Part shown: positions 3,799 through 36,836 of the stretch, piece after piece
Layout of the letters: every line of letters begins with the position of its first letter
Numbering within the stretch: position 1 is the first letter of the stretch
DNA from: Paracoccus sp. (in: a-proteobacteria)
GTDB taxonomy: Bacteria > Pseudomonadota > Alphaproteobacteria > Rhodobacterales > Rhodobacteraceae
Reading direction: 5' to 3'
Length of the DNA stretch: 42,968 nt
Assembly (NCBI GenBank): GCA_030538705.1
Contig: JAUNTL010000016.1
Location: 1 to 42,968 of the forward strand
Notes under the pieces: model-generated
Seen by the model: the letters and a program-made list of their open reading frames with translations, nothing else
Told to the model about the DNA's origin: nothing
Databases searched by the model: none
Program-made: the position numbers and the translations under genes

Positions 3799-3841
3799 GA
3801 AGAACCTTTCCCGATAGCGGTCCTGTAGGCCAAGGCTGAAA

Positions 3842-3869: not shown

Positions 3870-3885
3870 GATCTGCGCGCGTGAC

Positions 3886-5130: not shown

Positions 5131-6645
5131 ATGAGCTTTAATCCCCATGGCAACCACCTGATCGCCGGCGAATGGATCGGCACGGATATCAAGTTCCGCT
5201 CTGAGCCGGCGCATGGTCCGGCACATGAGTTCAGCACCGGCACGGCTGATCTGGTCGATCGCGCCGCCCGCGCGGCCGAGGAAGCGTTCTGGGAATACGG
5301 CTATCTCCCGCGCGAGGCCCGTGCCGGATTTCTGGATGCCATCGCCGACGAGATCGAGGCCCGCGCCGAGGCGATCACCGAAATCGGCACGCAGGAAACC
5401 GGCCTGCCCGCCGCCCGCCTGCAAGGCGAGAGGGGTCGCACGACCGGGCAACTGCGCCTGTTTGCCGATCATATCCGCAAGGGTGACTATCTGGACCGGC
5501 GCCATGATGCGGCCCTGCCGGATCGCCAGCCGCTGCCGCGCCCCGACCTGCGCATGATCCAACGCCCCATCGGCCCGGTCGCGGTGTTCGGTGCGTCGAA
5601 TTTTCCGCTGGCCTTTTCGACGGCGGGCGGGGATACCGCCGCCGCCCTTGCGGCCGGTTGCCCTGTGGTGGTCAAGGGCCATTCCGCCCACCCCGGCACC
5701 GGCGAGATCGTGGCCGAGGCCATTGCCGCCGCCATCACGCGGACCGGCATGCCCAGGGGCGTGTTCAGCCTGATTCAGGGCGGGCGTCGCGATGTCGGCG
5801 AGGCGCTTGTCCGGCATCCGCTGATCAGGGCGGTGGGCTTTACCGGCAGCCTTGCGGGGGGGCGTGCGCTGTTTGATCTCTGTGCCGCGCGGCCCGAGCC
5901 GATCCCCTTTTTCGGCGAGCTGGGCAGCGTCAATCCGATGTTCATCCTGCCAGCCGCCGCCACCGCGCGCGGCGCGGCGATCGGCAAGGGCTGGGCGGGG
6001 TCGCTGACCATGGGGGCAGGGCAGTTCTGCACCAATCCCGGCATCGCCGTGATCGACAGGGGCGCTGCCGGCGATGCGCTGATCGCGGCCGCAGTCGAGG
6101 CCCTGCGCGAGACCGCCCCGCAGGTCATGCTGACCGGTGGCATCGCACGGGCCTATCATGACGGCAAGGCGCGGTTCGATGCCCGCAACGCCGTCCGTCC
6201 GCTGCTGACCACCGACAGCGCCGGGCGCGAGGCCGGCCCGAACCTTTATGAAACCGATGCCGCCAGCTATCTTCAGGATCATTCTCTGGGTGAAGAGGTC
6301 TTTGGCCCGCTGGGTCTGGTCATCCGCACCGACGGGATCGAGGACATGCTGCGGCTGGCGCGCGGGTTCGAGGGGCAGTTGACCGCGACCCTGCACATGG
6401 ATGCCGGCGACGCTGATGACGCCCGCCGCCTGTTGCCGGTCCTTGAACGCAAGGCGGGCCGCGTGCTGGCCAATGGTTTCCCGACCGGGGTCGAGGTTGC
6501 TGACAGCATGGTCCACGGCGGCCCTTATCCGGCCAGCACGAATTTCGGCGCGACCTCGGTCGGGACGCTGGCCATCCGCCGCTTTCTGCGGCCGGTGTGT
6601 TATCAGAACATCCCTCAGGAGGTGCTGCCCGCCGATCTGACCTGA
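5131..6645 (+). CDS. NADP-type aldehyde dehydrogenase, possible 2-oxoglutarate semialdehyde dehydrogenase
   Basis: This 504-residue aldehyde dehydrogenase belongs to the branch containing alpha-ketoglutaric semialdehyde dehydrogenases. It shows the GASNFPLAFSTAGGDTAAALAAGCPVVVK cofactor region, a general-base Glu in FFGELGSVNP (about residue 263) and the catalytic Cys in GQFCTNPG (about residue 300). It would oxidise a dicarboxylate semialdehyde to the acid in the cytoplasm. The frame is open 30 codons upstream, but the ATG at 5131 has an AAGGACAGGA ribosome-binding sequence and starts the usual MSFNPHGNHLIAGEWI. It diverges from the TRAP operon. It could serve that operon or supply the last step of 4-hydroxyproline breakdown encoded at 19-21 kb. 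The family is certain; the substrate is inferred. Confidence 0.85.
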   Translation: MSFNPHGNHLIAGEWIGTDIKFRSEPAHGPAHEFSTGTADLVDRAARAAEEAFWEYGYLPREARAGFLDAIADEIEARAEAITEIGTQETGLPAARLQGERGRTTGQLRLFADHIRKGDYLDRRHDAALPDRQPLPRPDLRMIQRPIGPVAVFGASNFPLAFSTAGGDTAAALAAGCPVVVKGHSAHPGTGEIVAEAIAAAITRTGMPRGVFSLIQGGRRDVGEALVRHPLIRAVGFTGSLAGGRALFDLCAARPEPIPFFGELGSVNPMFILPAAATARGAAIGKGWAGSLTMGAGQFCTNPGIAVIDRGAAGDALIAAAVEALRETAPQVMLTGGIARAYHDGKARFDARNAVRPLLTTDSAGREAGPNLYETDAASYLQDHSLGEEVFGPLGLVIRTDGIEDMLRLARGFEGQLTATLHMDAGDADDARRLLPVLERKAGRVLANGFPTGVEVADSMVHGGPYPASTNFGATSVGTLAIRRFLRPVCYQNIPQEVLPADLT

Positions 6646-7328
6646 TCGCGCGGTCCGGTGCCGCGCAATGGGTGCGGCGGCGCGGCGCCTGCGCCCCGCG
6701 TTTGCATGGGCAGCCAGCAGCCGTCACGCGTTCCGCTGGGCGATCCCGCTGCGCCCCGCGCATGCATGGGGCAGCCGCTCCGCTCCAGCCGGCTTTCGGC
6801 AATATGGGCCGCCCGCCGCGCGCCCCGCGCATCCACGGACAGCCGGCGCCGGACAGCCTGTGCGGACAGGCCGGCCAGCATCATCGCGGCCACCGCCTCG
6901 CCACAAGGCGGTGGCGGTGGCAGAATGACCCGGGTGCGTTCGTTTTTGACCGCGCCTGCCCCGCGCATCCATGGACAGCCGGCACCGGACAGCGCACGCG
7001 GACGGGCCGGCCAGCATCATCGCGGCCACCGCCTCGCCACAGGCTGCGGCCTCGCCACAAGGCGGGGGCGGTGGCAGAATGACCCGGGTGCGTTCGTTTT
7101 TGACCGCGCCGGCCCCGCGCATCCACGGACAGCCGGCGCCGGACAGCCTGTGCGGACGGGCCGGCCAGCATCGGCGCGGTCACCGCCTCGCCACAGGCTG
7201 CGGCCTCGCCACAAGGCCGGGGCGGTGGCATACTGACCCCGGAGGCGTCCGTTCTTGACCGCGCGTGGCGGCGGGCGTAACGCGGCCCGGCCGGCGCCAT
7301 GGGCCGTCTGTTTCTGAAAGGTCACGAC
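6646..7328. other. Gene-free, repeat-bearing region
   Basis: No credible gene lies in these 683 bp. Long open frames exist in several phases only because the DNA is extremely GC-rich. The same translated motifs recur in different frames, which is what repeats of length not divisible by three produce. Besides the three long tandem units (6823-7266), shorter decayed copies of the unit's first 25 bp occur near 6690 (GCGCCCCGCGTTTGCATGGG) and near 6753 (GCGCCCCGCGCATGCATGGG). Confidence 0.75.
6823..7266. repeat. Three tandem imperfect repeats of 136, 154 and about 154 bp
   Basis: Units start with CCCCGCGCATCCA at 6823, 6959 and 7113 and end with a TTTTTGACCGCGCC-type sequence. Units two and three carry an extra 18 bp (CAGGCTGCGGCCTCGCCA), a local duplication of the CTCGCCACA motif. 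Each unit holds an inverted repeat: CCACCGCCT and AGGCGGTGG in unit one, with the arms largely kept in the others. Unit lengths of 136 and 154 are not multiples of three, arguing against a repeat-protein gene. Function is unknown. Confidence 0.85.
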
Positions 7329-8270
7329 ATGGATGGTCCGATCCGTGGCATCTTGCTGAAATGCGCCTCTGTCACCGTGTTCACGGTGATGGCCGCCATC
7401 GTCAAGGCAACCTCGGAGGGCGGGCTGGGCGTGCCGCCGGGTCAGCAGGTGTTCTTTCGCTCGTTCTTTGCGATTCCGGTGATCCTCGTCTGGCTGATCT
7501 GGGCGCGCCAGCTGGGCACGGGGCTGCGCACCTTTCGCCCGATGGGCCATGTCTGGCGCGGGCTGGTCGGCACGGCGGCGATGTTTCTGGGCTTTTGGTC
7601 GCTGGCCCTGATCCCCTTTCCCGAGGCGACGGCAATCGGCTATGCCGCGCCGCTGCTGGTCGTCATCTTTGCCGCGATGTTTCTGGGCGAGGATGTGCGC
7701 CTGTTCCGGCTGTCCATGGTCGGGCTGGGGCTGATCGGCGTGCTGATCGTGTTATCACCCAGCATCGGCACCCAGCCGGGCAATGACCGGCTGGCCGAGA
7801 TGCAGCGCAGCCTCGGCGCGGTTCTGGCACTGGGTGCTGCGGTCTGTGCGGCGCTGGCGCAGATCTTTGTGCGCAAGCTGGTTGCGGATGAACGCACCTC
7901 GGCCATCGTGTTCTGGTTCTCGGTCACAGCATCGGTGCTGGCGCTGCTGACGCTGCCCTCGGGCTGGGTCTGGCCGGAGCCGGCGACGGCGGCGCTGCTG
8001 GTTGCCACCGGGCTGCTGGGCGGGCTGGGGCAGATCCTGCTGACCTCGGCCTACCGGCATGGCGAGGCGTCGCTGGTCGCGCCGTTTGAATATGTCTCGA
8101 TCCTGCTGGCCATCGCCATCGGCTGGTTCCTGTTTGACGAGGCGGCGACATGGACGATGCTCGCGGGGGCATCACTGGTGATCGTGGCCGGGCTGCTGAT
8201 CATCTGGCGCGAGCGCCGTCTGGGGCTGGAACGCAACCGCCAGCGCAAGGCGATGACGCCGCAGGGCTAG
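7329..8270 (+). CDS. DMT-superfamily (EamA) membrane transporter
   Basis: This 313-residue inner-membrane protein has ten hydrophobic segments in two EamA repeats, the first ending near residue 140 and the second starting near SLGAVLALGAAVCAALAQIFVRKLV. PFPEATAIGYAAPLLVVIFAAMFLGE and EASLVAPFEYVSILLAIAIGWFLFDE are the typical repeat ends of drug/metabolite exporters. The substrate cannot be read from sequence. An ATG ten codons upstream (7299) is possible, but the ATG at 7329 has an AAAGG ribosome-binding site at 7 bp. The gene is alone on its strand and follows the tandem-repeat region, which may hold its promoter. A hairpin follows the stop. Confidence 0.88.
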   Translation: MDGPIRGILLKCASVTVFTVMAAIVKATSEGGLGVPPGQQVFFRSFFAIPVILVWLIWARQLGTGLRTFRPMGHVWRGLVGTAAMFLGFWSLALIPFPEATAIGYAAPLLVVIFAAMFLGEDVRLFRLSMVGLGLIGVLIVLSPSIGTQPGNDRLAEMQRSLGAVLALGAAVCAALAQIFVRKLVADERTSAIVFWFSVTASVLALLTLPSGWVWPEPATAALLVATGLLGGLGQILLTSAYRHGEASLVAPFEYVSILLAIAIGWFLFDEAATWTMLAGASLVIVAGLLIIWRERRLGLERNRQRKAMTPQG

Positions 8271-11244: not shown

Positions 11245-11709
11245 TCAGATCTCGGTCCAGCTCTGATCGACGATGGCCTCCATCCCGACATAGCTGGTCG
11301 TCGCGTGAAGGTGCGGCAGAGACGAGATCCGGTCAGCCATCAGCTGCCGGAAATGACCCATATCGCGCGAGCGCACCTTCAGCAGATAGTCAAAGCCGCC
11401 GGCGATCATGTAACATTCCTCGACCTCGGTGATCGCGCGCACGGCGGTATTGAACTGCTCAAGTGCCTTTTGCCGGGTGTCGTTCAGCCGGGCCTCGACA
11501 TAGGTGACATGGGTCAGCCCCAGCGACAGCGGCGACAGGATTGCGCGATAGCCGGTGATCAGCCCGATCTCCTCCATCTGGCGGATCCGCTGGGCCACGG
11601 GGGTTTTCGACAGCCCGACCTTGCGCGCCAGTTCGCTGACCGGGATGCGGGCATTGGCGACCAGTTCAGCCAGAATGCGGCGATTGATTGCGTCCAGGTC
11701 CTTTATCAT
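11245..11709 (-). CDS. putR: Lrp/AsnC-family regulator, PutR-like
   Basis: This 154-residue regulator has an N-terminal helix-turn-helix (about residues 20-45, VSELARKVGLSKTPVAQRIRQME) and a C-terminal RAM/AsnC ligand domain (VEARLNDTRQKALEQF to SYVGMEAIV). It is divergent from putA across 110 bp, the arrangement known for PutR in Agrobacterium, Rhodobacter and Caulobacter, where it activates putA in response to proline. An AGGAGA ribosome-binding site precedes the ATG. Its target is very likely the putA promoter in the shared intergenic region. The assignment rests on both family and position. Confidence 0.9.
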   Translation of the reverse strand: MIKDLDAINRRILAELVANARIPVSELARKVGLSKTPVAQRIRQMEEIGLITGYRAILSPLSLGLTHVTYVEARLNDTRQKALEQFNTAVRAITEVEECYMIAGGFDYLLKVRSRDMGHFRQLMADRISSLPHLHATTSYVGMEAIVDQSWTEI

Positions 11710-11819
11710 CGTCTGAAACTCTCCTGATAAAAGGTCTGTATAACTGCGAATTCGCCCAAGAACAGACGCATCGACTGGCCAGTATCGGCTAGATTGCCGT
11801 AATCAACAAGGGGATTTCC

Positions 11820-14800
11820 ATGACCGCGCCCGACCTCGATTCCTTTACGCTGGATGCCAAATTCCGCCCTGCGCCGGATCTTCTGTCCGAACTGATCGCG
11901 ACAGCGGGCCTGTCGGATGACGACCGTGCCCGCATCTCGGCCCGTGGCGCCGATCTGGTGGCCCGCATCCGCGCCGAGGCCAAGCCTTCGCTGATGGAGC
12001 ATTTTCTGGCGGAATACGGGCTGTCGACCCGCGAGGGCGTCGCGCTGATGTGTCTGGCCGAGGCGATGCTGCGCGTCCCCGACCGCACCACCATCGACGC
12101 GCTGATCGAGGACAAGATCGCGCCTTCGGACTGGGGCCGGCATCTGGGCGAGGCGTCGTCCTCGCTGGTCAATGCCTCGACCTGGGCGCTGATGCTGACG
12201 GGCAAGGTTCTGGATGACGACCAGCCCGGTCTGGTCGGAACGCTGCGCGGTGCCATCCGCCGTCTGGGCGAGCCGGTGATCCGCAGTGCGGTGGGCCGCG
12301 CCATGCGCGAGATGGGGCGGCAGTTCGTGCTGGGTCAGACCATCGGTGCCGCGCTGGATCGCGCGCGCAAGCTGGAATCGCAGGGCTATTCCTATAGCTA
12401 TGACATGCTGGGCGAGGCCGCGATGACGCAGGCCGATGCCGACCGCTATGCCCGCGAATACGCCGCCGCGATCCGCGCCATCGCCGGGGCCTGTGACAAG
12501 GGTTCCGTGCGCGACAATCCCGGCATCTCGATCAAGCTGTCCGCGCTGCATCCGCGATACGAGGTCGCGCAACAGGACCGTGTCATGGCCGAACTGGTTC
12601 CGGTGGTGCTGGATCTGGCGCGTCAGGCGAGGGCGGCGGGCATGGGCATGAACATCGACGCCGAGGAGCAGGACCGGCTCGTCTTGTCGCTGCGCGTGAT
12701 CGAGGCGGTGCTGTCCGATCCCTCGCTGGCCGGCTGGGACGGGTTCGGTGTGGTGGTGCAGGCCTATGGCAAGCGCGCCGGCATGGCGATCGACTGGCTT
12801 TATGGTCTTGCCAGCCGGCTGGACCGCAAGATCATGGTGCGGCTGGTCAAGGGCGCCTATTGGGATACGGAAATCAAGCGCGCCCAGGTCGAGGGGCTGC
12901 CCGGATTTACCCTGTTCACCCGCAAGGCCGAAACCGATGTCAGCTATATCGCCAATGCCCGCCGGCTGATCGGTTATGCGGATCGCATCTATCCGCAATT
13001 TGCCACCCATAACGCCCATACCGTCGCCGCGATCATCGACATGGCGGGCGCTGTGGATTTCGAATTTCAGCGTCTGCACGGCATGGGCGAGCGGCTGCAT
13101 GATATCGTCATCCGTGACGAAAGCCGGTCGGGCAAGCGGCGCTGCCGTATCTATGCCCCGGTTGGCGCGCATCGCGACCTGCTGGCCTATCTGGTCCGCC
13201 GCCTGCTGGAGAACGGTGCCAACAGCAGCTTTGTTCACCAGATCGTTGACGAATCGGTGTCCCCGTCCGAGGTGGCGCGCGATCCCTTTGCCGCGCTGGA
13301 GGCCGACCACGCGCCTGCGGCCCTCGCCGTCCCGGCGGCGATCTTTGGCCGCGGCCGGGTCAACTCGGCGGGCTTTGATCTCAGCGATCAGGCCACGCTT
13401 GCGCGGATTGCGGCTGCCGCGCCAGCGCGCCTGACGGATGCCGGCCCGATCACCGTCAGCGCCGCCAGCGGCAAGGCGCGCCCGGTGATCAGCCCGGCCA
13501 CCGGCGCGGAACTGGCGCAGGTCACGGATGCTGATGCCGCCTGCACGGCCCGCGCAATTGCCGATGCGCGTGTCTGGGATGCCCCTGCGTCTGAACGCGC
13601 CGCCGTTTTGCGCCGTGCCGCCGATCTGTATGAAGAGAATTACGGCGAGATCTTTGCAACCCTGACGGCCGAGGCCGGCAAGACCCTGCCCGATGCCGTC
13701 GGCGAGCTGCGCGAGGCGGTCGATTTCCTGCGCTATTACGCAGCCGAGGGCGAGGCCCGCGAGGGCGCCGCGCCGCGTGGCATCATCACCGCGATCAGCC
13801 CGTGGAATTTTCCGCTGGCGATCTTCAGCGGTCAGATCGCGGCGGCGCTGATGGCCGGCAATGGCGTGCTGGCCAAACCCGCCGAACAGACGCCCCTGAT
13901 CGCCGCGGTTGCGGTGCGGCTGCTGCACCGCGCGGGCGTGCCGGTCCATGCGGCTCAACTGTTGCCGGGCGATGGCGGGACGGTCGGTGCGGCGCTGACG
14001 GCGGATGCGCGGATCTCGGGCGTCGTCTTTACCGGCTCGACCGAAACCGCGCAGCTGATCGCGCGCAGCATGGCCGCACATCTGGACCCCGGCGCGCCGC
14101 TGATTGCGGAGACCGGGGGGCTGAATGCGATGGTGGTCGACTCCACCGCCCTGCCGGAACAGGCGGTCCGCGATATCGTCGCTTCGGCCTTTCGTTCGGC
14201 GGGACAGCGCTGTTCGGCCCTGCGTTGCCTTTATGTGCAAGAGGACATCGCCGCGCCGCTGACCGAGATGCTGAAAGGCGCCATGGACCAGCTGCGCATC
14301 GGTGATCCGGCCGATCTGACGACCGATGTCGGCCCGGTGATCGACGCGGATGCGCTGGCGGATATCGCGGGATATGTTGATGCGCAGGGCGGTGCGATCC
14401 TGCACCGTATGGATGTGCCGGCAGATGGCCATTTCGCGGCGCCCGCACTGATCCGCGTGGATGGTATCGACGATCTCCCGCGCGAGATATTCGGCCCGGT
14501 CCTGCATGTCGCAAGCTTCCGTGCCGATGATCTGCCCGAGGTGATCGCGGCGATCAATGGCCGTGGTTTCGGGCTGACATTCGGGCTGCATACCCGCATC
14601 GATTCCCGCGTCCAGCAGATCGCCGATGCGGTCCACGCCGGCAATATCTATGTCAACCGCAACCAGATCGGTGCGGTGGTCGGCAGCCAGCCTTTCGGCG
14701 GCGAAGGGCTGTCAGGCACCGGACCCAAGGCGGGCGGACCGAACTATCTGCCGCGGTTCTATGCGCCCGAGCCGGCAGCGGCCGGCATGGCCGCAGACGC

Positions 14801-15224
14801 CGGCGGCGGGGACAATACCGCGCCGGCGCCGGACAGGAATATCTCGGAAACCCTGATGCCCGGTCCCACGGGTGAGCTGAACCGCCTGTTCACGCGCCCG
14901 CGCGGCCCGGTCCTGTGCCTTGGCCCCGGGGCGCAGGCGGCTGCCGCGCAGGTCGCGGCGGTGACACGGCTGGGCGGCATCGGCGTGACCGGTGCGGATG
15001 ATCTGACGCCCGGGGCCTTGGCCGGCCTGTCCGATCTGGCAGCGGTGATCTGGTGGGGCGATGCCGGGCGCGGGCGCGCATATGCGCAGGCGCTGGCGGG
15101 GCGCGCGGGCGCGATTGTCCCGCTTGTCACCGCGATGCCCGATGCGGCCCATGTCGCGCATGAGCGTCATCTTTGCGTCGACACCACCGCCGCCGGCGGC
15201 AACGCGGCGCTGCTGGCCGGCTGA
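11820..15224 (+). CDS. putA: Bifunctional proline dehydrogenase / L-glutamate-gamma-semialdehyde dehydrogenase
   Basis: This 1134-residue PutA oxidises L-proline to pyrroline-5-carboxylate (FAD, electrons to quinone) and then to glutamate (NAD). The N-terminal alpha domain is followed by the proline dehydrogenase barrel (about 180-480) with ISIKLSALHPRYE, MNIDAEEQDRL, VRLVKGAYWDTEIK and QFATHNAHT. The aldehyde dehydrogenase domain (about 560-980) has SPWNFPLAIF, the Glu of AETGG (about 763) and the Cys of GQRCSALR (about 797). A C-terminal tail of about 150 residues follows an Ala/Pro-rich linker. No ribbon-helix-helix domain is evident at the N-terminus, so repression by PutA itself is not expected, in keeping with PutR control. 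An AAGGGG ribosome-binding site precedes the ATG. It also serves as the sink for proline made from 3-hydroxyprolines. Confidence 0.96.
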   Translation: MTAPDLDSFTLDAKFRPAPDLLSELIATAGLSDDDRARISARGADLVARIRAEAKPSLMEHFLAEYGLSTREGVALMCLAEAMLRVPDRTTIDALIEDKIAPSDWGRHLGEASSSLVNASTWALMLTGKVLDDDQPGLVGTLRGAIRRLGEPVIRSAVGRAMREMGRQFVLGQTIGAALDRARKLESQGYSYSYDMLGEAAMTQADADRYAREYAAAIRAIAGACDKGSVRDNPGISIKLSALHPRYEVAQQDRVMAELVPVVLDLARQARAAGMGMNIDAEEQDRLVLSLRVIEAVLSDPSLAGWDGFGVVVQAYGKRAGMAIDWLYGLASRLDRKIMVRLVKGAYWDTEIKRAQVEGLPGFTLFTRKAETDVSYIANARRLIGYADRIYPQFATHNAHTVAAIIDMAGAVDFEFQRLHGMGERLHDIVIRDESRSGKRRCRIYAPVGAHRDLLAYLVRRLLENGANSSFVHQIVDESVSPSEVARDPFAALEADHAPAALAVPAAIFGRGRVNSAGFDLSDQATLARIAAAAPARLTDAGPITVSAASGKARPVISPATGAELAQVTDADAACTARAIADARVWDAPASERAAVLRRAADLYEENYGEIFATLTAEAGKTLPDAVGELREAVDFLRYYAAEGEAREGAAPRGIITAISPWNFPLAIFSGQIAAALMAGNGVLAKPAEQTPLIAAVAVRLLHRAGVPVHAAQLLPGDGGTVGAALTADARISGVVFTGSTETAQLIARSMAAHLDPGAPLIAETGGLNAMVVDSTALPEQAVRDIVASAFRSAGQRCSALRCLYVQEDIAAPLTEMLKGAMDQLRIGDPADLTTDVGPVIDADALADIAGYVDAQGGAILHRMDVPADGHFAAPALIRVDGIDDLPREIFGPVLHVASFRADDLPEVIAAINGRGFGLTFGLHTRIDSRVQQIADAVHAGNIYVNRNQIGAVVGSQPFGGEGLSGTGPKAGGPNYLPRFYAPEPAAAGMAADAGGGDNTAPAPDRNISETLMPGPTGELNRLFTRPRGPVLCLGPGAQAAAAQVAAVTRLGGIGVTGADDLTPGALAGLSDLAAVIWWGDAGRGRAYAQALAGRAGAIVPLVTAMPDAAHVAHERHLCVDTTAAGGNAALLAG

Positions 15225-27602: not shown

Positions 27603-27834
27603 GCCGTGATCCGTCGGATCGCGCCCTTGCCGTGGGGCCGGCATCCGGTCCCGCACGATCAGCGGTGATGCAGCGCGGGATAGCGGGGGGGCAAAGGCCA
27701 CGCGGCCCTTGCGCCCGCTGCCGGGGGCGTGCGGGTCGGGCGGGGTGTTGTCGCGGGTTCCCGGTTGGGGCAATGACGGCTTGACCGCACCAAATCATTC
27801 GATAATACATGAACTATCGAATTATGAGGTGGCC
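27603..27834 (+). promoter_or_regulatory. Intergenic region with arsR promoter
   Basis: This 232-bp gap lies between the aminotransferase and arsR. The left 180 bp are GC-rich with nothing recognisable beyond a small GATCC-GTC-GGATC hairpin. The right end (27790-27830) turns AT-rich and contains the arsR palindrome. Confidence 0.5.
27797..27822. promoter_or_regulatory. Palindrome upstream of arsR, putative ArsR operator
   Basis: ATTCGATA at 27797-27804 and TATCGAAT at 27815-27822 are perfect 8-bp arms with a 10-bp spacer, 13 bp before the arsR start codon. Position and symmetry fit an autoregulatory ArsR site overlapping the promoter, relieved by arsenite. Confidence 0.65.
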
Positions 27835-28200
27835 ATGGAAACGGCTCAGGCTCTGGACAGCTTTGCGGCCCTCTCTCACGAGGGGCGGCTGGCGGTGCTG
27901 CGGCTGCTGATCGCGGCTGAACCCGAAGGGATGGCGGCCGGCGACATCGCCGCCCGGCTGAAGGTTCTGCCCAATACCCTGTCGAACAATCTGGGCGTTC
28001 TGTCGCAGGCCCGGCTGGTGCGGTCGCGTCGTCAGGGGCGGCAGGTGGTCTATTTTGCGCGGATCGACACCGTGCAGGACATCGTCCGTTTCCTGATGCG
28101 TGACTGCTGCGGCGGCGCGGCCGCGATCTGCGGGCCGGTCGCCGCCGACCTGATCGCCTGCACGCAGCATGATAACCCCAAGGAGTGCCGTGATGGCTGA
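27835..28200 (+). CDS. arsR: ArsR-family arsenic-responsive repressor
   Basis: This 121-residue winged-helix repressor has the ArsR core FAALSHEGRLAVLRLLIAAEPEGMAAGDIAARLKVLPNTLSNNLGVLSQARLVRSRRQGRQVVYF. The metal site is not in the recognition helix. A Cys91-Cys92 pair and Cys99 lie in the last helix (RDCCGGAAAIC), as in the Acidithiobacillus ferrooxidans type that binds arsenite with C-terminal cysteines. It heads the arsR-arsC-acr3 operon, and its stop overlaps the arsC start. It should bind the palindrome at 27797-27822 and release it on arsenite binding. Confidence 0.92.
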   Translation: METAQALDSFAALSHEGRLAVLRLLIAAEPEGMAAGDIAARLKVLPNTLSNNLGVLSQARLVRSRRQGRQVVYFARIDTVQDIVRFLMRDCCGGAAAICGPVAADLIACTQHDNPKECRDG

Positions 28201-28693
28201 CACCGCGTTCAACGTTCTTTTCCTTTGCACCGGCAATTCCGCGCGTTCGCTGATCGCCGAAGCGGTGCTGAATGCCGAAGGCTCGGGCCGGTTCCGGGCA
28301 TGGTCGGCCGGCTCGCAACCTGCGGGCGCGCCGCATCCGGGCGCGCTGAACCTGCTGGAGCGTCTGGGTCACGATACCTCGGGCCTGCGGTCGAAATCAT
28401 GGGACGAGTTCACGCGGCCGGGCGCCCCTAAAATGGACTTTGTCTTTACGGTCTGCGATTCGGCTGCTGCCGAGACCTGCCCTGTCTGGCCCGGCCAGCC
28501 GATGACCGCCCATTGGGGCGTGCCCGATCCTGCCACCGCGACCGGGACCGCGGCCGAGCAGGGCGCGGCCTTTAACACGGCGCACCGGATGCTGGCGACG
28601 CGGATCGGGCTGTTCACCGCCCTGCCGCTGGAATCGCTGGAACGCCAGAGCCTGCGCGCGCGGCTGAACGAGATCGGAAAGGCGGGAATATGA
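28193..28693 (+). CDS. arsC: Arsenate reductase, low-molecular-weight phosphatase type
   Basis: This 166-residue LMW-phosphatase-fold protein has the C-x5-R loop CTGNSAR (Cys12-Arg18), a second and third Cys in [15 protein letters not shown] (Cys88 and Cys96) and the acid Asp112 in VPDPA. Three cysteines fit a thioredoxin-coupled arsenate reductase giving arsenite. The start at 28193 overlaps arsR by 8 bp and has an AAGGAG ribosome-binding site; the end overlaps acr3 by four bases. Its product is exported by the next protein. Confidence 0.9.
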
Positions 28694-29787
28694 GCGCGTC
28701 TGACGCCGCCCCGATGGGGGTGTTCGAGCGCTGGCTGACCCTTTGGATCGCATTGGCGATCATCGGGGGCATCGTGCTGGGCAATCTGGCGCCCGGTCTG
28801 GTCAGCGCGATCGCCGCCGCCGAACTCGCCGGGATCAATCTGGTCGTCGGCGCGCTGATCTGGGCCATGGTCTATCCGATGATGGTCGGTGTCGATCTGG
28901 GCGCGGTTTCGGGCGTGGCGCGCCAGCCGCGCGGCCTGATGGTGACGCTGGTCGTCAACTGGCTGATCAAGCCGTTCACCATGGCGGCGTTGGCCGTGCT
29001 GTTTTTTGATCATGTCTTCGCGCCATGGATCGCACCCGAGGATGCGGCGCAATATATTGCCGGGCTGATCCTTTTGGGCGCCGCGCCCTGCACGGCGATG
29101 GTCTTTGTCTGGGCGCAGCTCGTGCGCGGGGACGAGACCTATACGCTGGTGCAGATATCGGTGAATGACATCATCATGGTCTTTGCCTTTGCGCCGATTG
29201 TCGCGCTGCTTCTGGGTGTGACCGATATCGTGGTGCCCTGGCAGGTTCTGATCATGTCCACGGTGCTGTATATCGTGCTGCCGCTGCTGGCCGGATTGCT
29301 GACGCGGCGGGCTCTGGGCAGCGAGGCGGCGATTGCGGGCTTTCAGGCGCGGATCAAGCCGTGGTCGGTGGTCGGGCTGATTGCGACGGTGATGATCCTG
29401 TTTGGCATGCAGGGCAACGCGATACTGGAGCGCCCGCTGCTGATCGCGATGATCGCGGTGCCGATCCTGATCCAGTCTTACGGCATTTTCGTGCTGGCCT
29501 ATGGTGCGGCCTTTGCCCTGCGGGTGCCGCATCGTATCGCCGCGCCCTGTGCGCTGATCGGAACCTCGAATTTTTTCGAGCTTGCGGTGGCGGTGGCGAT
29601 CAGTCTTTTCGGGCTGAACTCGGGTGCGGCGCTGGCCACGGTGGTCGGCGTTCTGGTCGAGGTGCCGGTGATGCTGTCGCTGGTGGCCATCGCGAACCGC
29701 ACGCGGGGGCGTTTCGCCGGTGATGATCGCGCGGACCGGCCCGGCGGCGCGCCGCCGCGGACAGCGCCGCGCGCCGGTGCCCCCTAG
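28690..29787 (+). CDS. acr3: Arsenite efflux permease, ACR3 family
   Basis: This 365-residue inner-membrane protein has ten hydrophobic segments and the ACR3 landmarks [14 protein letters not shown], the conserved membrane Cys in [16 protein letters not shown] and [24 protein letters not shown]. It exports arsenite (and possibly antimonite) made by ArsC. It begins four bases inside arsC. Its stop codon overlaps the stop of the convergent SUMF1-type gene at 29784-29787, so the arsenic operon ends tail to tail with the putative secretion cassette with no terminator space. Confidence 0.93.
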
Positions 29788-30788
29788 CGCGGCAGTGGCG
29801 GCAGATCGACGGCTTCGAACGGGCCGGGCATCGCGGCGGGGATGGCTGCGCGGCGGATGCCGGCGGGCAGGGGATCGGGCAGATCGGCGGCGCAGCGCGC
29901 GCCGATCACGCCAGATCCCGCATGAACCGGGGCCGGCCAGACATGTTCCATCCGGGCCAGCAGATCCGCGGGGATGATGCTGCGCAATGTTTCCGAATCG
30001 GCGAGGGGTTCGGCCCTGCCACGCATCGGTATCGTCTCATACAGCGCATCGCTGAAGTTGCTGCCGCCCTTGAAGACGCGGAGATCCCCGGCATCTGACG
30101 GCGTGTGGTCACCGACCCATTCATAAAGCCCGCGCGCCATGTCGTGAAAGCCCATCGGGTTGGCGGGAAAGCTGGCAACCGGCGGGTTTTGCGATTCCGG
30201 TTCACCATAACGGGCGGCCGGCACATTCTGCCCGGCGCGATAGCTGCCGTCATCGGTGGCCCATGGCACCACCAGCCCGCCCGAACGCGCGGCATATTCC
30301 CATTCCGCCTCAGCGGGCAGACGCATCGGCAGCCCGACCTGCTGGCCCAGCCATGCGCAGTAATCCCGCGCCTCTTGCCACAACATTGCGGCCGGACGGT
30401 CAGGCAGGTTGGCGAAACTCGTGTGATCAGGGGCGGCCACCGGCAGGCCGAGGGCGTCCAGATAAAGGTCAAACTCGGCCTGCGAGACCTCGCGGTCCTG
30501 CAACAGGAAACCGGGCAGATCGACGGCGTGGGCGGCAAGCGCATTGGCCGGCGAATAGGCCGGGCGCGTCTGAACCGTGCCGTCGGCATCCAGAAACGGC
30601 ACGTCATAATTACCGGCCATAAAGCTGCCGCCCGGCACCGCGATCAATGTCGCCAGGGTGCGTTCGGCCAGACCTTCGCGCGGGGCGATGTGATCATCGC
30701 TGCCGCGCGCCGACAGCAGGGCCGCGCTTGCACCAAGGGCGGCAGCTGTTGCGGCACATGCCGCGACGAGGGTTGCGCGCCTAGGCAT
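29784..30788 (-). CDS. Exported SUMF1/FGE-fold protein lacking the catalytic cysteines
   Basis: This 334-residue protein has an N-terminal hydrophobic export signal (residues 6-26) followed by a formylglycine-generating-enzyme (SUMF1) domain. The domain includes [10 protein letters not shown] (51-60), [26 protein letters not shown] (157-170), [15 protein letters not shown] (213-227), FKGGSNFSD (239-247) and the tail [10 protein letters not shown] (293-302). The CxxxxC active-site region of true FGE is replaced by [13 protein letters not shown], with no Cys, so it is unlikely to make formylglycine. Non-catalytic SUMF1 proteins such as TagR work in the periplasm with type VI secretion. The start is 8 bp inside the preceding unknown gene, so it is operon-coupled. 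A protective or modulating partner for that protein is possible. Confidence 0.82.
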
Positions 30789-32631
30789 ATTGGACCTGTT
30801 GCACAAGCACCGGCGCGCCATAGGCCAATGTGCGCGACGGCAGGCGGTTGATCGCCTCATGCAGCCGCTGGAACTCGCGATATGAACCACCGTCGAGAAT
30901 ATAGCGCAGCCGCGCCAGCCCGGCGGCGGCGGTGGTCTTGGTCCCGGTGGGCGTGATCCGTTCCTGAACCTGCTCCCATTCGCGCTTGCTCTGCATGGTC
31001 GAGACGACGGCCAGAATCGCGGCCTCCTGATGTTCCTCGCGCGAGGACCAGAAGGTCTGGCTGAGGCGATACAGCACCGCGCCCTTGACCTCGGGGGGCG
31101 AGAAAATCAGTTCGAGCGGGCGCGCCTTGATGCGGCGGGCATAGGCTTCGGCCTCGGCGGCATTGGCGAAATCGGCGCGGATGGCGTTGACTGCGGCGCG
31201 GAAAGGTGCGGCCGCCAGCTGCGCAAGCTCGGTCCCGCGATCCAGCGCAAGCAGCAGCAGGCCGACGATCATGTTAAACGCCTCTTGCGCGATGAAATCG
31301 AGAAAGGCGAAATCATTGTCCTTGAGCTGATGATAGACATAGGCGACGAATTCGCGGATCGCGCCCAGCCCGACCTCGCCCTCGATCCCGCCCTTGGCAC
31401 CGATGCCCCAGACCAGTCTGGCCTCGCAGCGGAACATGAACTTGTCGCCTTCATAAGTGATGCGGAAATTTGCCTCGGCACCCGCGCCGGCACTGGCCAT
31501 GCCGGTCGCGCCGACCTTGAACAGTTCGCGCCAGCCGGCAGGCGTGATCTCCTGCTGGCTCTGGACGTCGATGATGCCGGGGTTTCTCCATTCCGCGGCA
31601 CCGGTGGCGCTGCCGCCGGCCTCGACCCCGGCGAATGCGCCGACGGCAATCTCGCCCTTTGCATCGGCGGCTGCCGGCATCACCGTCAGGATATTGCCGG
31701 CCTTTTTATATTCGATCCCGGCCGTTCCATAGATGCTGGCGCCCAGCATGGCGGACGCCTTGATCGTCAGCCGGCCACGGAAATAGCCGAAGTTCAGTTC
31801 CTGATAGCGCCCGGCATCGGAAGCGCGCGTGCTTTGGAACGGGATCATCGCATGCCAGCCATCGCGATGGGGGACATAGCCGTCGAATTGTGCCTTGGCC
31901 TCGCCCAGAATGGCGCGGGCCTCGGCATTTCCCGACAGGCCATAGGTGCTTTTCTTCGGGTCATAACCAAGCTGCGCGCCAAAGCCGGCATAGGCCCGCA
32001 TGAGCTGCGCGCCGGCCGACAGGTCATGATTGGCGCCCGCGTCGCTGAAGGTCAGGCTGTCGTTAACCGCATCAATCCATTGGGTAAAGCTGTTGTCCCA
32101 AAGATCCGAGACCGAGCCGCTGACCTGCCCCCGCGCCAGTTGTCCCTTGAAGGTGATGCCTTGCCCGAGATCGTCGCGGATCTTGCGCGAGGCGCTGGTG
32201 AAGGCGTTGCGCAGGCTGACCCGGTCAAGCTGGCTGCGGTCCCCGCGTTGCAGGGCGCGCAGCAGGGCGCGGTCGATCGGATAGCTGCGCCAGTGGTTGC
32301 GCATCTTGTCGCTGCGGATGCGGGTCCATTTCTTGCCGCTGAGCGAATAGGTCTGAACGACATGGCGCGTCGGCAGATGTTCGGAAGGGTCGATATAATC
32401 CTTGAGCATTTCGGCCAGATGGTTTTGCGCCTCGACCACCTGCTCGGGGTTGCCAGAGCTGGTTGCCCGATCCAATGCGCCAAAGGCCCGGTCCATCTCC
32501 AGAATTTCGCGTTTAAGCTCGCGCAGCTCGTTCCCGGAATAGAGCAGGATCTTGCTTTCACCGACGGCGCTGTCGCCACAGGCCAGAACGAAGAACAGCT
32601 CGACATCACCGCATTCAACGCAAGTGCTCAT
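30781..32631 (-). CDS. Uncharacterised protein, candidate type VI secretion effector
   Basis: I do not recognise a named family for these 616 residues. Residues 1-30 are Cys-rich and hydrophobic (CVECGDVELFFVLACG). Residues 35-160 are charged and helical. The centre (about 280-425) is Gly/Ala-rich with alternating short strands (GRLTIKASAMLGASIYGTAGIEYKK, GAKGGIEGEVGLGAI). A hydrophobic helix, FNMIVGLLLLALDRG, lies at 452-466. The C-terminal 140 residues are helical. It starts in a four-base overlap with a DUF4123 adaptor gene, and such adaptors load cargo onto VgrG spikes, so an effector role is inferred from position. The membrane-prone helix would suit a pore-forming or membrane-active toxin, but no catalytic motif is evident. 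Confidence 0.7.
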   Translation of the reverse strand: MSTCVECGDVELFFVLACGDSAVGESKILLYSGNELRELKREILEMDRAFGALDRATSSGNPEQVVEAQNHLAEMLKDYIDPSEHLPTRHVVQTYSLSGKKWTRIRSDKMRNHWRSYPIDRALLRALQRGDRSQLDRVSLRNAFTSASRKIRDDLGQGITFKGQLARGQVSGSVSDLWDNSFTQWIDAVNDSLTFSDAGANHDLSAGAQLMRAYAGFGAQLGYDPKKSTYGLSGNAEARAILGEAKAQFDGYVPHRDGWHAMIPFQSTRASDAGRYQELNFGYFRGRLTIKASAMLGASIYGTAGIEYKKAGNILTVMPAAADAKGEIAVGAFAGVEAGGSATGAAEWRNPGIIDVQSQQEITPAGWRELFKVGATGMASAGAGAEANFRITYEGDKFMFRCEARLVWGIGAKGGIEGEVGLGAIREFVAYVYHQLKDNDFAFLDFIAQEAFNMIVGLLLLALDRGTELAQLAAAPFRAAVNAIRADFANAAEAEAYARRIKARPLELIFSPPEVKGAVLYRLSQTFWSSREEHQEAAILAVVSTMQSKREWEQVQERITPTGTKTTAAAGLARLRYILDGGSYREFQRLHEAINRLPSRTLAYGAPVLVQQVQYA

Positions 32632-33596
32632 TGAAGAACTCCGTCAAGATCAAATTCTTTTACAAACTGGACAAGAATGAAACGCAGAGAATTTTCGCCG
32701 CTTTCGACCGTTGCCCAGAAATCCGGCCGGGCCTTTGGCGGCAGTTCGCGCACGACCATATAGGCCTCGGCGAAGGTTGGTTCGCCGTCAAAACCGGCAC
32801 AGTAGAGACGCAGATAGACATCGGCGCGGGCCGCGCGCTCGGCCGGGATATCCGTATGTGCCATGGCCATGTCGCGGGCCTGACGTTCGAACAGGGCTTC
32901 GCGCAGGCCGCGACGCTGGGCCGGGCCAAGCAGGGGAACCGGTGCCATATCCGGGTCGCTTTCGGGCAGACCAGGCGCGGGGGACGCGCAGAGAACCTCC
33001 CATTTTCCGTCAATCAGCGCGGGACGCCAGTGGATCAGCGCCGCGACCGGCCCGAAAAACGCCGAAATCTCGGCCGGCGAGCATTTGTCCAGCAATGCGG
33101 GCAGAAAGCCCGGCTCTTGCAGGCGGAAAATCTCGCGCACGCCGAATTCGTCCAGTAGCATCGTATAATGACGCAGATGATGGCGCAGGACGGGCAGGCT
33201 GACGGGCGCGTGCAGCACGATGCCCGGACGCCGGTCGAACAGATAGCGCGGGTTGTCATCCGCCCCGGCCGGTGTGAGCAATTCGCGCGTCAGGCGCGAT
33301 TCGGGCTGCAATTCGACCAGCCATGGCGCGGCGATGGACAGATCCTCGGCTGCATCATTGGAATAAAGACAGGCATGGGGAAGGCCCGACATGTCCAGCC
33401 GGTCCGACAGGAAGGTGACAATCGAGGAATCAAGTAGCGCATAGGTGCGGACCTGTTCTGTCCCGGCATCCGAGGCCGATTCAGCAGGAAACAATACCGA
33501 TTCGAGCGCCGGCAACAGGCTGGCTTTTCCGAGAAAAGGCTGATTGCCCTGAACCTCGGAATCGATCAACTCGGCACTGTGGTCAATCAGTTGCAT
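32628..33596 (-). CDS. DUF4123 protein, type VI secretion effector adaptor
   Basis: This 322-residue protein carries a DUF4123 domain: YALLDSSIVTFLSDRL (about 52-67), LYSNDAAEDLSIAAPWLVEL, GIVLHAPVSLPVLRHHLRHYTML, FRLQEPGFLPALL and FGPVAALIHW. The family (Tap/TEC) works as a cytoplasmic chaperone that couples effectors to VgrG tips. It is the first gene of a three-gene coupled operon with the 616-residue protein and the SUMF1-type protein. No vgrG, PAAR or structural gene lies in the window, so this is an orphan cassette. The start lacks a clear ribosome-binding sequence (GCAGCCCTATT precedes ATG), and the upstream 50 bp are unusually AT-rich. Confidence 0.85.
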   Translation of the reverse strand: MQLIDHSAELIDSEVQGNQPFLGKASLLPALESVLFPAESASDAGTEQVRTYALLDSSIVTFLSDRLDMSGLPHACLYSNDAAEDLSIAAPWLVELQPESRLTRELLTPAGADDNPRYLFDRRPGIVLHAPVSLPVLRHHLRHYTMLLDEFGVREIFRLQEPGFLPALLDKCSPAEISAFFGPVAALIHWRPALIDGKWEVLCASPAPGLPESDPDMAPVPLLGPAQRRGLREALFERQARDMAMAHTDIPAERAARADVYLRLYCAGFDGEPTFAEAYMVVRELPPKARPDFWATVESGENSLRFILVQFVKEFDLDGVLQ

Positions 33597-34511: not shown

Positions 34512-36776
34512 TCAGCTGCATTTGGAATGACCGCAAGAGGGGCAGGTCAGGCAGCCTTCGATCATGCGCATGCCGTATTGCCCGCAACTTGGGCAAGCGG
34601 GGCCGCGCGGGCGTGTGCCGATGGTCACGACCTCGGCCTGAGGATCGGATTTTGCGGCCATCCCCTCGCCGGCCAGAAATCCGGTCGAGATCATGTGACC
34701 CTCGATCACCCCGCCGATGGCCGCAAGGATCGAGGGGACATAGCGCCCGGACATCCACGCCCCCCCGCGCGGGTCGAACACGGCCTTGAGTTCCTCGACC
34801 ACAAAGGACACTTCGCCGCCGCGCCGGAACACGGCCGAAACCATGCGCGTCAGCGCTACCGTCCAGGCGTAATGCTCCATGTTCTTGGAGTTGATGAACA
34901 CCTCGAACGGGCGGCGGTGGCCGCCATGAAGGATATCATTGATCGTGATATAGATCGCATGCTCGCTGCCCGGCCATTTCAGCTTGTAGGTCGCGCCCTC
35001 CAGCGCGGCGGGGCGGTCCAGCGGTTCGGTCAGATAGACAACCTCTGCGCCCTGATCGGCCTCGGGGGTCTTTTCGCTGGTCTCGCTGACGCTCAGCACG
35101 CTGCCGGTGACGTCATTGGGACGATAGGTGGTGCAGCCCTTGCAGCCGAGATCCCATGCCGCGAGATAGACGTCCTTGAAATCCCCGAAGGAAATATCCT
35201 CGGGGCAGTTGATGGTTTTCGAAATCGAGCTGTCCACCCATTCCTGCGCCGCCGCCTGCATGGCCACATGATCGCGCGGGCTCAGCGTCTGGGCGTTCAC
35301 GAAATAATCGGGCAGGGGCGCATCGCCATGCAGGTCGCGCCACATCTGGACGGCGTAATCGACGACCTCTTCCTCGGTGCGGGAACCATCCTTTTGCAGG
35401 ACTTTGCGCGAATAGGCATAGGCAAAGACCGGCTCGATCCCCGAGCTGACATTGCCCGCATAAAGGCTGATCGTGCCGGTGGGCGCGATACTGGTCAGCA
35501 GCGCGTTGCGGATGCCGTGTTCGCGGATCGCGTCGCGGACATCGTCGTCCATCCGCATCATAAAGCCCGACTTCAGATATTCGTCGGCGTCGAACAGCGC
35601 AAATGCCCCCTTTTCCCGCGCCAGATCGACCGACGCCAGATAGGCCGCCCGCGCAATCGCCTTCATCCATTTGCGGGTCTGTTCCACCGCATCCGGCGCA
35701 CCGTAGCGCAGCCCCACCATCAGCAGCGCATCGGCCAGCCCGGTGACGCCCAGCCCGATGCGGCGCTTGGCCCCGGCCTCGGCCGCCTGTTTGTCGAGCG
35801 GGAATTTCGACGCATCGACAACGTTATCCATCATCCGCACGGCGGTCCGCACCAGATCGTCAAGCGCCCCCTCATCCAGCCGTGCCGCATCGGTGAACGG
35901 GTCCGCCACCAGCCGCGCAAGGTTGACCGACCCCAGCAGGCAGGCGCCATAGGGGGGCAGGGGCTGCTCGCCGCAGGGGTTCGTCGCGGCGATGGTTTCG
36001 GCATAACGCAGGTTGTTGGCGGCATTGATGCGGTCGATAAAGATCACGCCCGGCTCGGCATAATCATAGGTTGCGCGCATGATGCGGTTCCACAGATCGC
36101 GCGCCTGCACGGTGTGATAGACCTTGCCGCCAAAAACCAGATCCCAGGGCGCGTCATCGCGCATCGCCTGCATAAAGGCATCCGTGACCAGCACCGACAG
36201 GTTGAACATGCGCAGCCGCGCGCTGTCCTGCTTGGCGGCGATGAACGCCTCGATATCGGGGTGATCGCAGCGCATCGTCGCCATCATGGCGCCGCGCCGC
36301 GATCCCGCCGACATGATCGTGCGGCACATCGCATCCCAGACATCCATGAAGCTGAGCGGCCCCGAGGCATCCGCCGCCACCCCGGCCACCGGCGCCCCGC
36401 GCGGCCGGATGGTGCTGAAATCATAGCCGATGCCGCCGCCCTGCTGCATGGTCAGCGCCGCCTCTTTCAGCATGTCGAAAATGCCGGCCATGCTGTCGGG
36501 GATGGTTCCCATGACGAAGCAGTTGAACAGCGTCACCGCCCGCCCGGTGCCCGCGCCCGCCAGGATGCGCCCGGCCGGCAGGAATTTGAAATCCTCAAGC
36601 GCTGCATAGAATTTATTCTCCCATGCCTCCGGCTCTGTCTCGACCGCGGCCAGATCGCGCGCGACGCGGCGCCAGCTGTCTTCAACCGACAGGTCAAGCG
36701 GCTGGCCCTGCGGGTCACGCAGGCGGTATTTCATTTCCCAGATCTGTTCAGCGATGGGTGCGGCAAAGCGGGACAT
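34512..36776 (-). CDS. nrdJ: Adenosylcobalamin-dependent ribonucleotide reductase (class II)
   Basis: This 754-residue class II reductase converts ribonucleotides to deoxyribonucleotides using B12 and so works with or without oxygen. Visible features are LPAGRILAGAGTG, LFNCFVMGTI (first active-site Cys), the NPCGEQPLPPYGACLLGSVNL radical and catalytic region, and SIAPTGTISLYAGNVSSGIEP. The C-terminus ends in a Cys-rich tail (CPSCGQYGM, CLTCPSCGHSKC) that would bind metal or relay reducing equivalents. The ATG at 36776 has GAGGA at 7 bp and gives the usual family length; the open frame extends 16 codons further. NrdR-box-like sequences lie just upstream and a strong terminator downstream. It stands alone. 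Confidence 0.95.
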   Translation of the reverse strand: MSRFAAPIAEQIWEMKYRLRDPQGQPLDLSVEDSWRRVARDLAAVETEPEAWENKFYAALEDFKFLPAGRILAGAGTGRAVTLFNCFVMGTIPDSMAGIFDMLKEAALTMQQGGGIGYDFSTIRPRGAPVAGVAADASGPLSFMDVWDAMCRTIMSAGSRRGAMMATMRCDHPDIEAFIAAKQDSARLRMFNLSVLVTDAFMQAMRDDAPWDLVFGGKVYHTVQARDLWNRIMRATYDYAEPGVIFIDRINAANNLRYAETIAATNPCGEQPLPPYGACLLGSVNLARLVADPFTDAARLDEGALDDLVRTAVRMMDNVVDASKFPLDKQAAEAGAKRRIGLGVTGLADALLMVGLRYGAPDAVEQTRKWMKAIARAAYLASVDLAREKGAFALFDADEYLKSGFMMRMDDDVRDAIREHGIRNALLTSIAPTGTISLYAGNVSSGIEPVFAYAYSRKVLQKDGSRTEEEVVDYAVQMWRDLHGDAPLPDYFVNAQTLSPRDHVAMQAAAQEWVDSSISKTINCPEDISFGDFKDVYLAAWDLGCKGCTTYRPNDVTGSVLSVSETSEKTPEADQGAEVVYLTEPLDRPAALEGATYKLKWPGSEHAIYITINDILHGGHRRPFEVFINSKNMEHYAWTVALTRMVSAVFRRGGEVSFVVEELKAVFDPRGGAWMSGRYVPSILAAIGGVIEGHMISTGFLAGEGMAAKSDPQAEVVTIGTRPRGPACPSCGQYGMRMIEGCLTCPSCGHSKCS

Positions 36777-36789
36777 TTCATGATCCTCA

Positions 36790-36836
36790 ATGGCGTAATT
36801 TGTGGCAATCCGTGATGGCACCACTAAATATTGATG
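36790..36836 (-). promoter_or_regulatory. Possible pair of NrdR boxes upstream of nrdJ
   Basis: CCACTAAATATTGATG (36821-36836) matches the NrdR-box pattern ACACTATATATTGTGT at 11 of 16 positions. A weaker candidate, ATGGCGTAATTTGTGG (36790-36805), starts exactly 31 bp away, the usual three-turn spacing of paired boxes. The second box keeps only its right half well. Control by NrdR is therefore plausible but not proven by sequence. Confidence 0.4.

What the first reader, a model, noticed from the sequence alone, without database searches (positions are those of the whole stretch)
29784..33596. Orphan cassette: DUF4123 adaptor, unrecognised 616-residue protein, and an exported SUMF1-fold protein
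Seen: three minus-strand genes linked by 4-bp and 8-bp overlaps. The first is a clear DUF4123 protein, the second matches no family I know and has a membrane-prone helix at 452-466, and the third is exported with a SUMF1 fold. Known: DUF4123 proteins load effectors onto VgrG, and SUMF1-fold TagR acts with type VI secretion in the periplasm. Inferred: the middle protein is a new type VI effector class and the SUMF1 protein is its periplasmic immunity or modulator. No vgrG, PAAR or tss gene is in the window, so it would have to be served by a secretion system elsewhere in the genome.
Basis: partly seen in the sequence, partly recalled or inferred. Interest (0 to 1): 0.75.

Follow-up and report, generated by a model that had tools for sequence, protein, structure and literature searches.

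The report
T6SS effector with SUMF1-type immunity protein
Three linked genes in this bacterium look like a portable type VI weapon cassette (a loader, an unclassified toxin that probably damages the cell envelope, and an exported inactive-enzyme lookalike that protects its owner), and related toxin-protector pairs occur in other bacteria.

Summary
In detail: three minus-strand genes (DUF4123; 616 aa, no family; FGE/SUMF1) with 4-bp and 8-bp overlaps. The effector-immunity reading is well supported. The genome has two TssC loci, three VgrG matches above cut-off and nine DUF4123 matches. Relatives of the 616-aa protein lie beside vgrG and/or DUF4123 genes in gamma- and betaproteobacteria. Of 39 relative loci read, 31 have an FGE gene next door; 4 have a Sel1/TPR-like gene instead, 1 has neither, 3 are cut by contig ends. 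Thirty FGE proteins aligned all lack cysteines where FGE has its catalytic pair: a binding scaffold, not an enzyme. FGE-type T6SS immunity is already published (Lopez 2021; title seen, text not held); the toxin domain is what is unclassified. It matches no library searched and is not VasX-like by profile. A beta-periodic Gly/Ala-rich core and exported immunity favour envelope damage (inferred). Kinship with A. baumannii Tse3 could not be tested.

The parts
32628..33596 (-). P0001, DUF4123 adaptor (Tap-like), 322 aa; DUF4123 domain at 33063-33443
   Evidence: PF13503 E 4.9e-16; domain coordinates; 4-bp overlap with the next gene, kept in 5 of 6 relatives checked
30781..32631 (-). P0002, 616-aa predicted T6SS effector
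   Evidence: No match over cut-off in Pfam/NCBIfam, none in PHROGs/PADLOC; homologues beside vgrG/DUF4123/FGE
32359..32631 (-). P0002 residues 1-91: N-terminal region; cysteines C4 and C7 (CxxC) kept in all 7 Rhodobacteraceae rows of A4; candidate adaptor-binding part
   Evidence: Alignment A4; role inferred
30826..32358 (-). P0002 residues 92-602: toxin domain shared by the family
   Evidence: Alignments A2, A4, A5; profile searches
31372..32034 (-). P0002 residues 200-420: Gly/Ala-rich, beta-periodic core
   Evidence: 94 of 222 overlapping windows starting at 200-430 are beta-periodic above the 95% level of column shuffles
30832..31344 (-). P0002 residues 430-600: alpha-periodic C-terminal part
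   Evidence: 33 of 171 windows alpha-periodic, 0 beta-periodic
29784..30788 (-). P0003, 334-aa predicted exported FGE/SUMF1-fold protein, predicted immunity; FGE domain at 30045-30653
   Evidence: PF03781 E 1.8e-26; coordinates and only FGE match in the genome; no Cys between the YCxWL and final RC motifs; export signal judged by eye

Best explanation
The three genes are a self-contained type VI secretion cargo module: the DUF4123 protein loads the 616-aa effector onto a VgrG spike made elsewhere in the genome; a T6SS delivers it into a rival cell, where its beta-rich toxin domain attacks the envelope from the periplasm, most likely by permeabilising the inner membrane; the exported, catalytically dead FGE/SUMF1-fold protein binds the toxin in the producer's own periplasm and neutralises it. 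Shown by sequence: gene order, domain identities, T6SS genes in the genome, recurrence of the toxin-FGE pair, absence of the FGE cysteine pair. Inferred: loading, delivery, toxicity, neutralisation, and (about 0.45) membrane damage rather than an enzymatic attack. The confidence below is for effector plus immunity, not for the membrane step.
For: Own genome: TssC x2, VgrG x3 over cut-off (one cut by its contig end) plus one weak fragment, DUF4123 x9. FGE next to the toxin in 31 of 39 loci. FGE genes in arrays of 2-5 copies in several loci, as for immunity genes. Export: lipobox pattern in 22 of the 30 FGE proteins aligned (not counting a spurious hit in an over-long reading of the window protein), hydrophobic N-terminus by eye in the Rhodobacteraceae ones. 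In the reciprocal FGE search of 398 genomes the six top genomes (G1024, G803, G1034, G901, G868, G951) all carry the toxin beside the FGE gene. LysM in some homologues fits a periplasmic site. Membrane step: beta periodicity; of 30 positions kept in at least 90% of the rows present (32 rows) the polar or charged ones are only S205, R212, E514 and K516.
Against: No experiment. No VgrG or PAAR gene was recognised in the window, and in the Rhodobacteraceae-type loci tblastn with two gammaproteobacterial VgrGs finds a vgrG only in L026 and L138. No conserved transmembrane helix, so an alpha-helical pore like Tke5 or Ssp4 is not indicated, and beta periodicity also fits an ordinary beta-sandwich. 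One homologue locus (L040) reads 2.4 kb on without an FGE gene; the Sel1 clade shows that FGE is not obligatory. FGE genes occur without this toxin in the stretches read of Acinetobacter plasmid L060 and V. campbellii L062, and beside a different effector (sub-threshold VasX_N match, E 4.8e-5) in L108.
Confidence: 0.87

Rival explanations
1. Same module, but the toxin is an enzyme acting on peptidoglycan, lipid or an envelope protein rather than a pore former.
For: LysM domains in Vibrionaceae homologues, LysM-like start by eye in the Marinobacter and Tamilnaduibacter ones; S205, R212 and E514 are almost invariant.
Against: No hydrolase family match over a cut-off; no His, Asp or Cys among the 30 positions kept at 90%.
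Confidence: 0.33
2. The effector belongs to the already named A. baumannii Tse3 family, whose immunity Tsi3 is FGE-like, so effector and immunity are both known kinds.
For: Tse3AB is 1001 aa with no conserved domain; four of the five distant members met here are about 1000-1265 aa frames, the fifth 702 aa; an Acinetobacter plasmid FGE is 45% identical to the FGE beside a family member in G1024. That Tsi3 is the FGE-like immunity of Tse3 is recalled from Lopez 2021.
Against: No Acinetobacter toxin of this family was met, but no Acinetobacter chromosome was knowingly searched; the long distant members whose next gene could be read (L080, L082, L109) have no FGE there.
Confidence: 0.5
3. The SUMF1 protein is not immunity but a modulator or activator (TagR-like, or a working FGE/EgtB-type enzyme).
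For: Best PDB match is the enzyme PvdO, and human-type FGE structures are among the other hits.
Against: Catalytic cysteine region empty in 30 of 30 aligned; probably exported; multi-copy arrays and copies without the toxin; the window genes beside it that were scanned are metabolic or ars-like, with no tag or ppkA gene recognised.
Confidence: 0.06
4. A decayed relic: the genes are no longer used.
For: Present in 1 of 125 congener genomes, the own one; no vgrG nearby.
Against: All three frames intact with tight overlaps; two TssC loci in the genome.
Confidence: 0.07

Closest known systems
Tse3-Tsi3 of Acinetobacter baumannii (Lopez et al. 2021, J Bacteriol 203:e00281-21; title seen in reference lists, full text not held, content recalled)
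   Same: FGE-fold immunity beside a T6SS effector of unknown function; FGE used as scaffold
   Different: Tse3AB is 1001 aa against 616 aa here; sequence kinship of the effectors untested
BTH_I2691/VasX family (Tke5, Ptx2; PMC12909789, passages read)
   Same: Delivered with a DUF4123 adaptor; periplasm-side action proposed
   Different: No VasX_N or BTH_I2691 match in P0002; hhalign probability 0.2% against this genome's own VasX_N protein (one side is a single sequence); no alpha-helical membrane region
Ssp4 family of Serratia (PMC12669606, passages read)
   Same: Envelope-acting T6SS effector without known relatives when found
   Different: Ssp4 has helices predicted transmembrane and its immunity Sip4 is an integral membrane protein; here the immunity is FGE-fold and no TM helix is conserved
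Working FGE/SUMF1, PvdO, EgtB enzymes
   Same: Fold
   Different: Cysteine pair of FGE absent

Membership tests
T6SS DUF4123-dependent cargo effector module | DUF4123 adaptor gene directly upstream of the effector | tested here: met
T6SS DUF4123-dependent cargo effector module | T6SS core and VgrG in the genome | tested here: met
   TssC x2, VgrG x3 over cut-off; other tss genes in L054/L055 recognised by eye
T6SS DUF4123-dependent cargo effector module | vgrG beside effector homologues | tested here: met
   in the close Rhodobacteraceae relatives only in L026 and L138
T6SS DUF4123-dependent cargo effector module | T6SS-dependent secretion and toxicity | not testable with these tools
   Needs bench work
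FGE-type T6SS immunity (Tsi3-like) | FGE domain | tested here: met
   PF03781 E 1.8e-26
FGE-type T6SS immunity (Tsi3-like) | Encoded next to the effector across the family | tested here: met
   31 of 39 loci; exceptions listed in the report
FGE-type T6SS immunity (Tsi3-like) | Exported to the periplasm | tested here: inconclusive
   Hydrophobic N-terminus by eye in P0003; lipobox pattern in 22 of 30 FGE proteins aligned; no signal-peptide predictor at hand
FGE-type T6SS immunity (Tsi3-like) | Binds and neutralises its effector | not testable with these tools
   Needs bench work
A. baumannii Tse3 effector family | Sequence kinship with Tse3AB | not tested
BTH_I2691/VasX effectors | VasX_N or BTH_I2691 profile match | tested here: not met
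BTH_I2691/VasX effectors | Hydrophobic transmembrane helices in the toxic region | tested here: not met
Ssp4 pore-forming effectors | Predicted TM helices plus integral-membrane immunity | tested here: not met
   no direct sequence comparison with Ssp4
Catalytic formylglycine-generating enzyme | Active-site cysteine pair before the final FRC-type motif | tested here: not met
   0 of 30; position of the pair recalled

The most novel reading that the evidence does not exclude
The 510-residue domain is an unclassified superfamily of T6SS toxins that perforates membranes by a Gly/Ala-rich beta structure, unlike the alpha-helical T6SS pore formers compared here, and that is carried by at least four delivery formats (DUF4123 alone, LysM with DUF4123, long N-terminal extension, directly after VgrG). 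It is countered by two unrelated immunity scaffolds that follow its tree: FGE folds in most branches and Sel1/TPR repeats in one clade.
Probability: 0.3. Interest if true: 0.72.

Novelty: new member of a known kind. Interest (0 to 1): 0.5.

Why it matters
It ties an unclassified toxin domain with members in alpha-, beta- and gammaproteobacteria to a specific immunity scaffold, so SUMF1/FGE genes beside vgrG or DUF4123 genes, annotated in the plasmid records read here as nonheme iron enzymes, can be re-read as immunity markers. It gives a minimal 616-aa version without LysM or MIX that is convenient for structure and electrophysiology, and a natural comparison (FGE clade against Sel1 clade) for how immunity scaffolds are exchanged.

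Tried and rejected
Rejected: BTH_I2691/VasX membership; sub-threshold Pfam hits SPOR (E 0.0033) and Imm49 (0.015) as chance; PDB profile hit at E 1.6 as chance; conserved TM helix at 452-466; TagR-like role (neighbours only; no direct TagR comparison). Led nowhere: genome-contig scan with P0002 alone, 0 relatives among 21 pattern matches; alignment A1 too diverse for a scan; structure prediction switched off, so no fold search; Rfam 0 hits; PHROGs and PADLOC 0 hits for P0001 and P0002, PHROGs one for P0003 (a family described as kinase, E 2.1e-18, taken as the FGE fold), PADLOC none; relatives, class and genus searches found only the own genome (1 of 148, 1 of 385, 1 of 125). Papers: Lopez 2021 not held; the nine paper searches listed no paper whose title or abstract start describes this toxin domain, but the lists are capped and I read only passages of eight papers; PMC10210955 matched 'FGE' through FgenesB. 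Rows and labels: one search aligned 30 FGE proteins from 21 loci, not every FGE copy found; one search dropped L043, L063 and L082 by a coverage filter, left out window duplicates and one identical row, and counts conservation on 32 rows without L080 and L081; one search added L082, L109 and L110. In that tree L040 and L041 carry the label FGE by default although L040 lacks FGE and L041 is cut by its contig end, and L081 carries SEL1 although its contig ends.
Full report
WHAT IS THERE. Three minus-strand genes lie between an arsenic-resistance-like set (arsR-like 27709-28200, LMW phosphatase-like 28169-28693, SBF/ACR3-type 28690-29787; Pfam, the arsenic assignment is mine) and a ribonucleotide reductase (34512-36824). 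They are P0001 (32628-33596, DUF4123, E 4.9e-16), P0002 (30781-32631, 616 aa, no family) and P0003 (29784-30788, 334 aa, FGE-sulfatase, E 1.8e-26); overlaps 4 and 8 bp. Cassette G+C is 0.638 against 0.656 for the window. I took the nrdJ region of 12 of the congeners with nrdJ; tblastn found neither the cassette nor the ars genes there in any. One of the 12 (L124) ends 60 bases past nrdJ and is not readable; two more (L125, L127) give only 1.4 and 3.1 kb on that side. The toxin domain is in 1 of 125 congener genomes, the own one. This fits a gained cassette.

THE GENOME HAS THE MACHINE. TssC (PF05943) occurs on two contigs and VgrG (TIGR03361) at four places, three over cut-off, one of them cut by its contig end. 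The surroundings of both TssC genes look like tss clusters (apart from TssC read by eye). DUF4123 has nine matches, all over cut-off. Near other DUF4123 genes lie a VasX_N protein (L048), a Tle1-like lipase (L053, convergent), a C39-peptidase-like protein (L051) and a 463-aa protein with a hydrophobic C-terminus (L050) followed by a hydrophobic protein by eye; an Rhs-PAAR-AHH protein lies in a VgrG locus (L057). The window cassette is therefore one of several adaptor-effector modules. It holds the only FGE-family match in the genome (the assembly is 86.6% complete).

RELATIVES. tblastn in plasmid records found 8 records. Annotated or readable neighbours: hcp-vgrG-DUF4123-effector with convergent SUMF1 (Aliivibrio), vgrG-DUF4123-effector with convergent SUMF1 (Vibrio campbellii), tssH-vgrG-effector-SUMF1(x2)-PAAR (Cronobacter; one record has a lipoprotein gene before vgrG), a similar order with one SUMF1 (Citrobacter), vgrG, other genes, a truncated effector and four SUMF1 frames (Klebsiella), and SUMF1 in convergent orientation (Pseudoalteromonas). 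A scan of genome contigs with the P0002/L010 alignment gave 18 loci, seven of them Rhodobacteraceae-type at 49-60% identity. Profile searches gave 10 of 398 genomes in the phylum, 3 of 248 in the family, 1 of 385 in the class (each tally includes the own genome).

FORWARD TEST. Starting from the toxin, 39 loci were read: L010-L017, L026-L043, L074-L082, L109-L110, L137-L138 (L029 and L030 come from one genome; the window itself is not counted). FGE is next door in 31. Of the other 8: in L109 and L110 the next gene is annotated sel1 repeat; in L082 it has a sub-threshold Sel1 match, and in L080 no Pfam match and a TPR-like look by eye; L040 reads 2.4 kb on with a PtuA-like ATPase and an HNH protein by eye instead; L041, L043 and L081 end too soon. 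L080-L082, L109 and L110 form one clade (local support 0.991; L081 by tree only). They match the profile built from the FGE branch at E 1e-26 to 1e-34, so they are true relatives with another neighbour type.

REVERSE TEST. Starting from FGE: in 398 phylum genomes searched with an Acinetobacter plasmid FGE, 30 match at E 1e-20 or better. The best six (E 2.3e-59 to 5e-34) are exactly the six sampled ones with an FGE-branch toxin, not counting the own genome. Next comes G1076, where FGE lies near a vgrG and a different effector with a sub-threshold VasX_N match, then the own genome; the remaining 22 are weaker (E 3.6e-25 and above) and were not inspected. In plasmids, the Cupriavidus FGE at E 1e-20 finds 17 records, of which 10 also hold the toxin; the rest are four 1,209-bp Klebsiella records, Acinetobacter L060, V. 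campbellii L062 and a Spirosoma record.

THE FGE PROTEIN IS A SCAFFOLD. In 30 FGE proteins from 21 of these loci the only shared cysteines are in the YCxWL motif and the final RC motif; none lies between, where FGE carries its catalytic pair (the position of the pair is recalled). 22 of 30 carry a lipobox-like pattern; the Rhodobacteraceae ones start with a hydrophobic stretch by eye. [quoted passage not shown] passage).

THE TOXIN DOMAIN. Residues 92-602 are shared. Column-mean hydrophobicity of 17 rows shows beta periodicity in 94 of 222 overlapping windows between 200 and 430, and alpha periodicity in 33 of 171 between 430 and 602, against about 5% by construction in column shuffles (windows overlap and are not independent). 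No transmembrane helix is conserved. Of 30 positions kept in at least 90% of the rows present (32 rows), about a dozen are glycine and only S205, R212, E514 and K516 are polar or charged. P0002 matches nothing over cut-off in Pfam or NCBIfam and nothing in PHROGs, PADLOC or, by profile, the PDB; relatives add LysM and one weak match of an N-terminal extension to a Vibrio effector model. I infer a structural, membrane-directed toxin as somewhat more likely than an enzyme (0.45 to 0.33).

WHAT IS KNOWN. FGE-like proteins as widespread T6SS immunity are the title claim of Lopez et al. 2021 (seen in reference lists; text not held; details recalled). A 2026 Stenotrophomonas study mentions an FGE-fold protein in the immunity cluster of a BTH_I2691 effector (passage). 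So immunity by FGE is an existing kind. The toxin domain is unclassified in the libraries searched; whether A. baumannii Tse3 belongs to it is the main open question for novelty. Hence the rating 'new member of a known kind'.

Noticed in passing
L048 (C16) 2249-8257; L053 (C95); L051 (C106); L050 (C129); L052 (C75), all own genome: Further DUF4123-linked effector candidates: VasX_N-type 1000-aa protein, Tle1-like lipase, C39-peptidase-like protein, a 463-aa protein with hydrophobic C-terminus, and two DUF4123 matches on C75, one with an in-frame TGA.
   Followed up: partly
L109 7559-9970, L110 7331-8413, L082 5823-6797: A sister clade of the toxin carries Sel1/TPR-type neighbours instead of FGE, suggesting an exchange of immunity scaffold during toxin evolution.
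   Followed up: partly
L040 9551-11855: A Pseudoalteromonas copy ends slightly short and is followed by a PtuA-like ATPase and an HNH protein (Septu-like by eye) in place of the FGE gene.
   Followed up: no
L062 7493-13712: Array of five FGE genes in Vibrio campbellii with no matching toxin in the 18.7 kb read: possible orphan immunity island.
   Followed up: no
plasmid records H23-H26 (NZ_CP079144.1, NZ_CP079171.1, NZ_CP079162.1, NZ_CP079681.1): Four 1,209-bp Klebsiella records carry an FGE-type gene over about half or more of their length; they may be circularised fragments of an immunity array. Seen in the hit list only.
   Followed up: no
window 32608-32631: N-terminal CxxC (C4, C7) of P0002 is kept in all seven Rhodobacteraceae rows of A4 and not seen at the N-termini of the six gammaproteobacterial members in A1; a possible metal site at the adaptor-binding end.
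   Followed up: no
L027 DUF4123 frame: The DUF4123 gene of this MAG locus has an in-frame stop before the toxin start, unlike the other five relatives checked.
   Followed up: no
window 11709-14636 (-) and 11820-15224 (+): Two long overlapping opposite frames; the minus-strand one (976 aa) has no Pfam match at 1e-5. Which is the gene was not settled.
   Followed up: no
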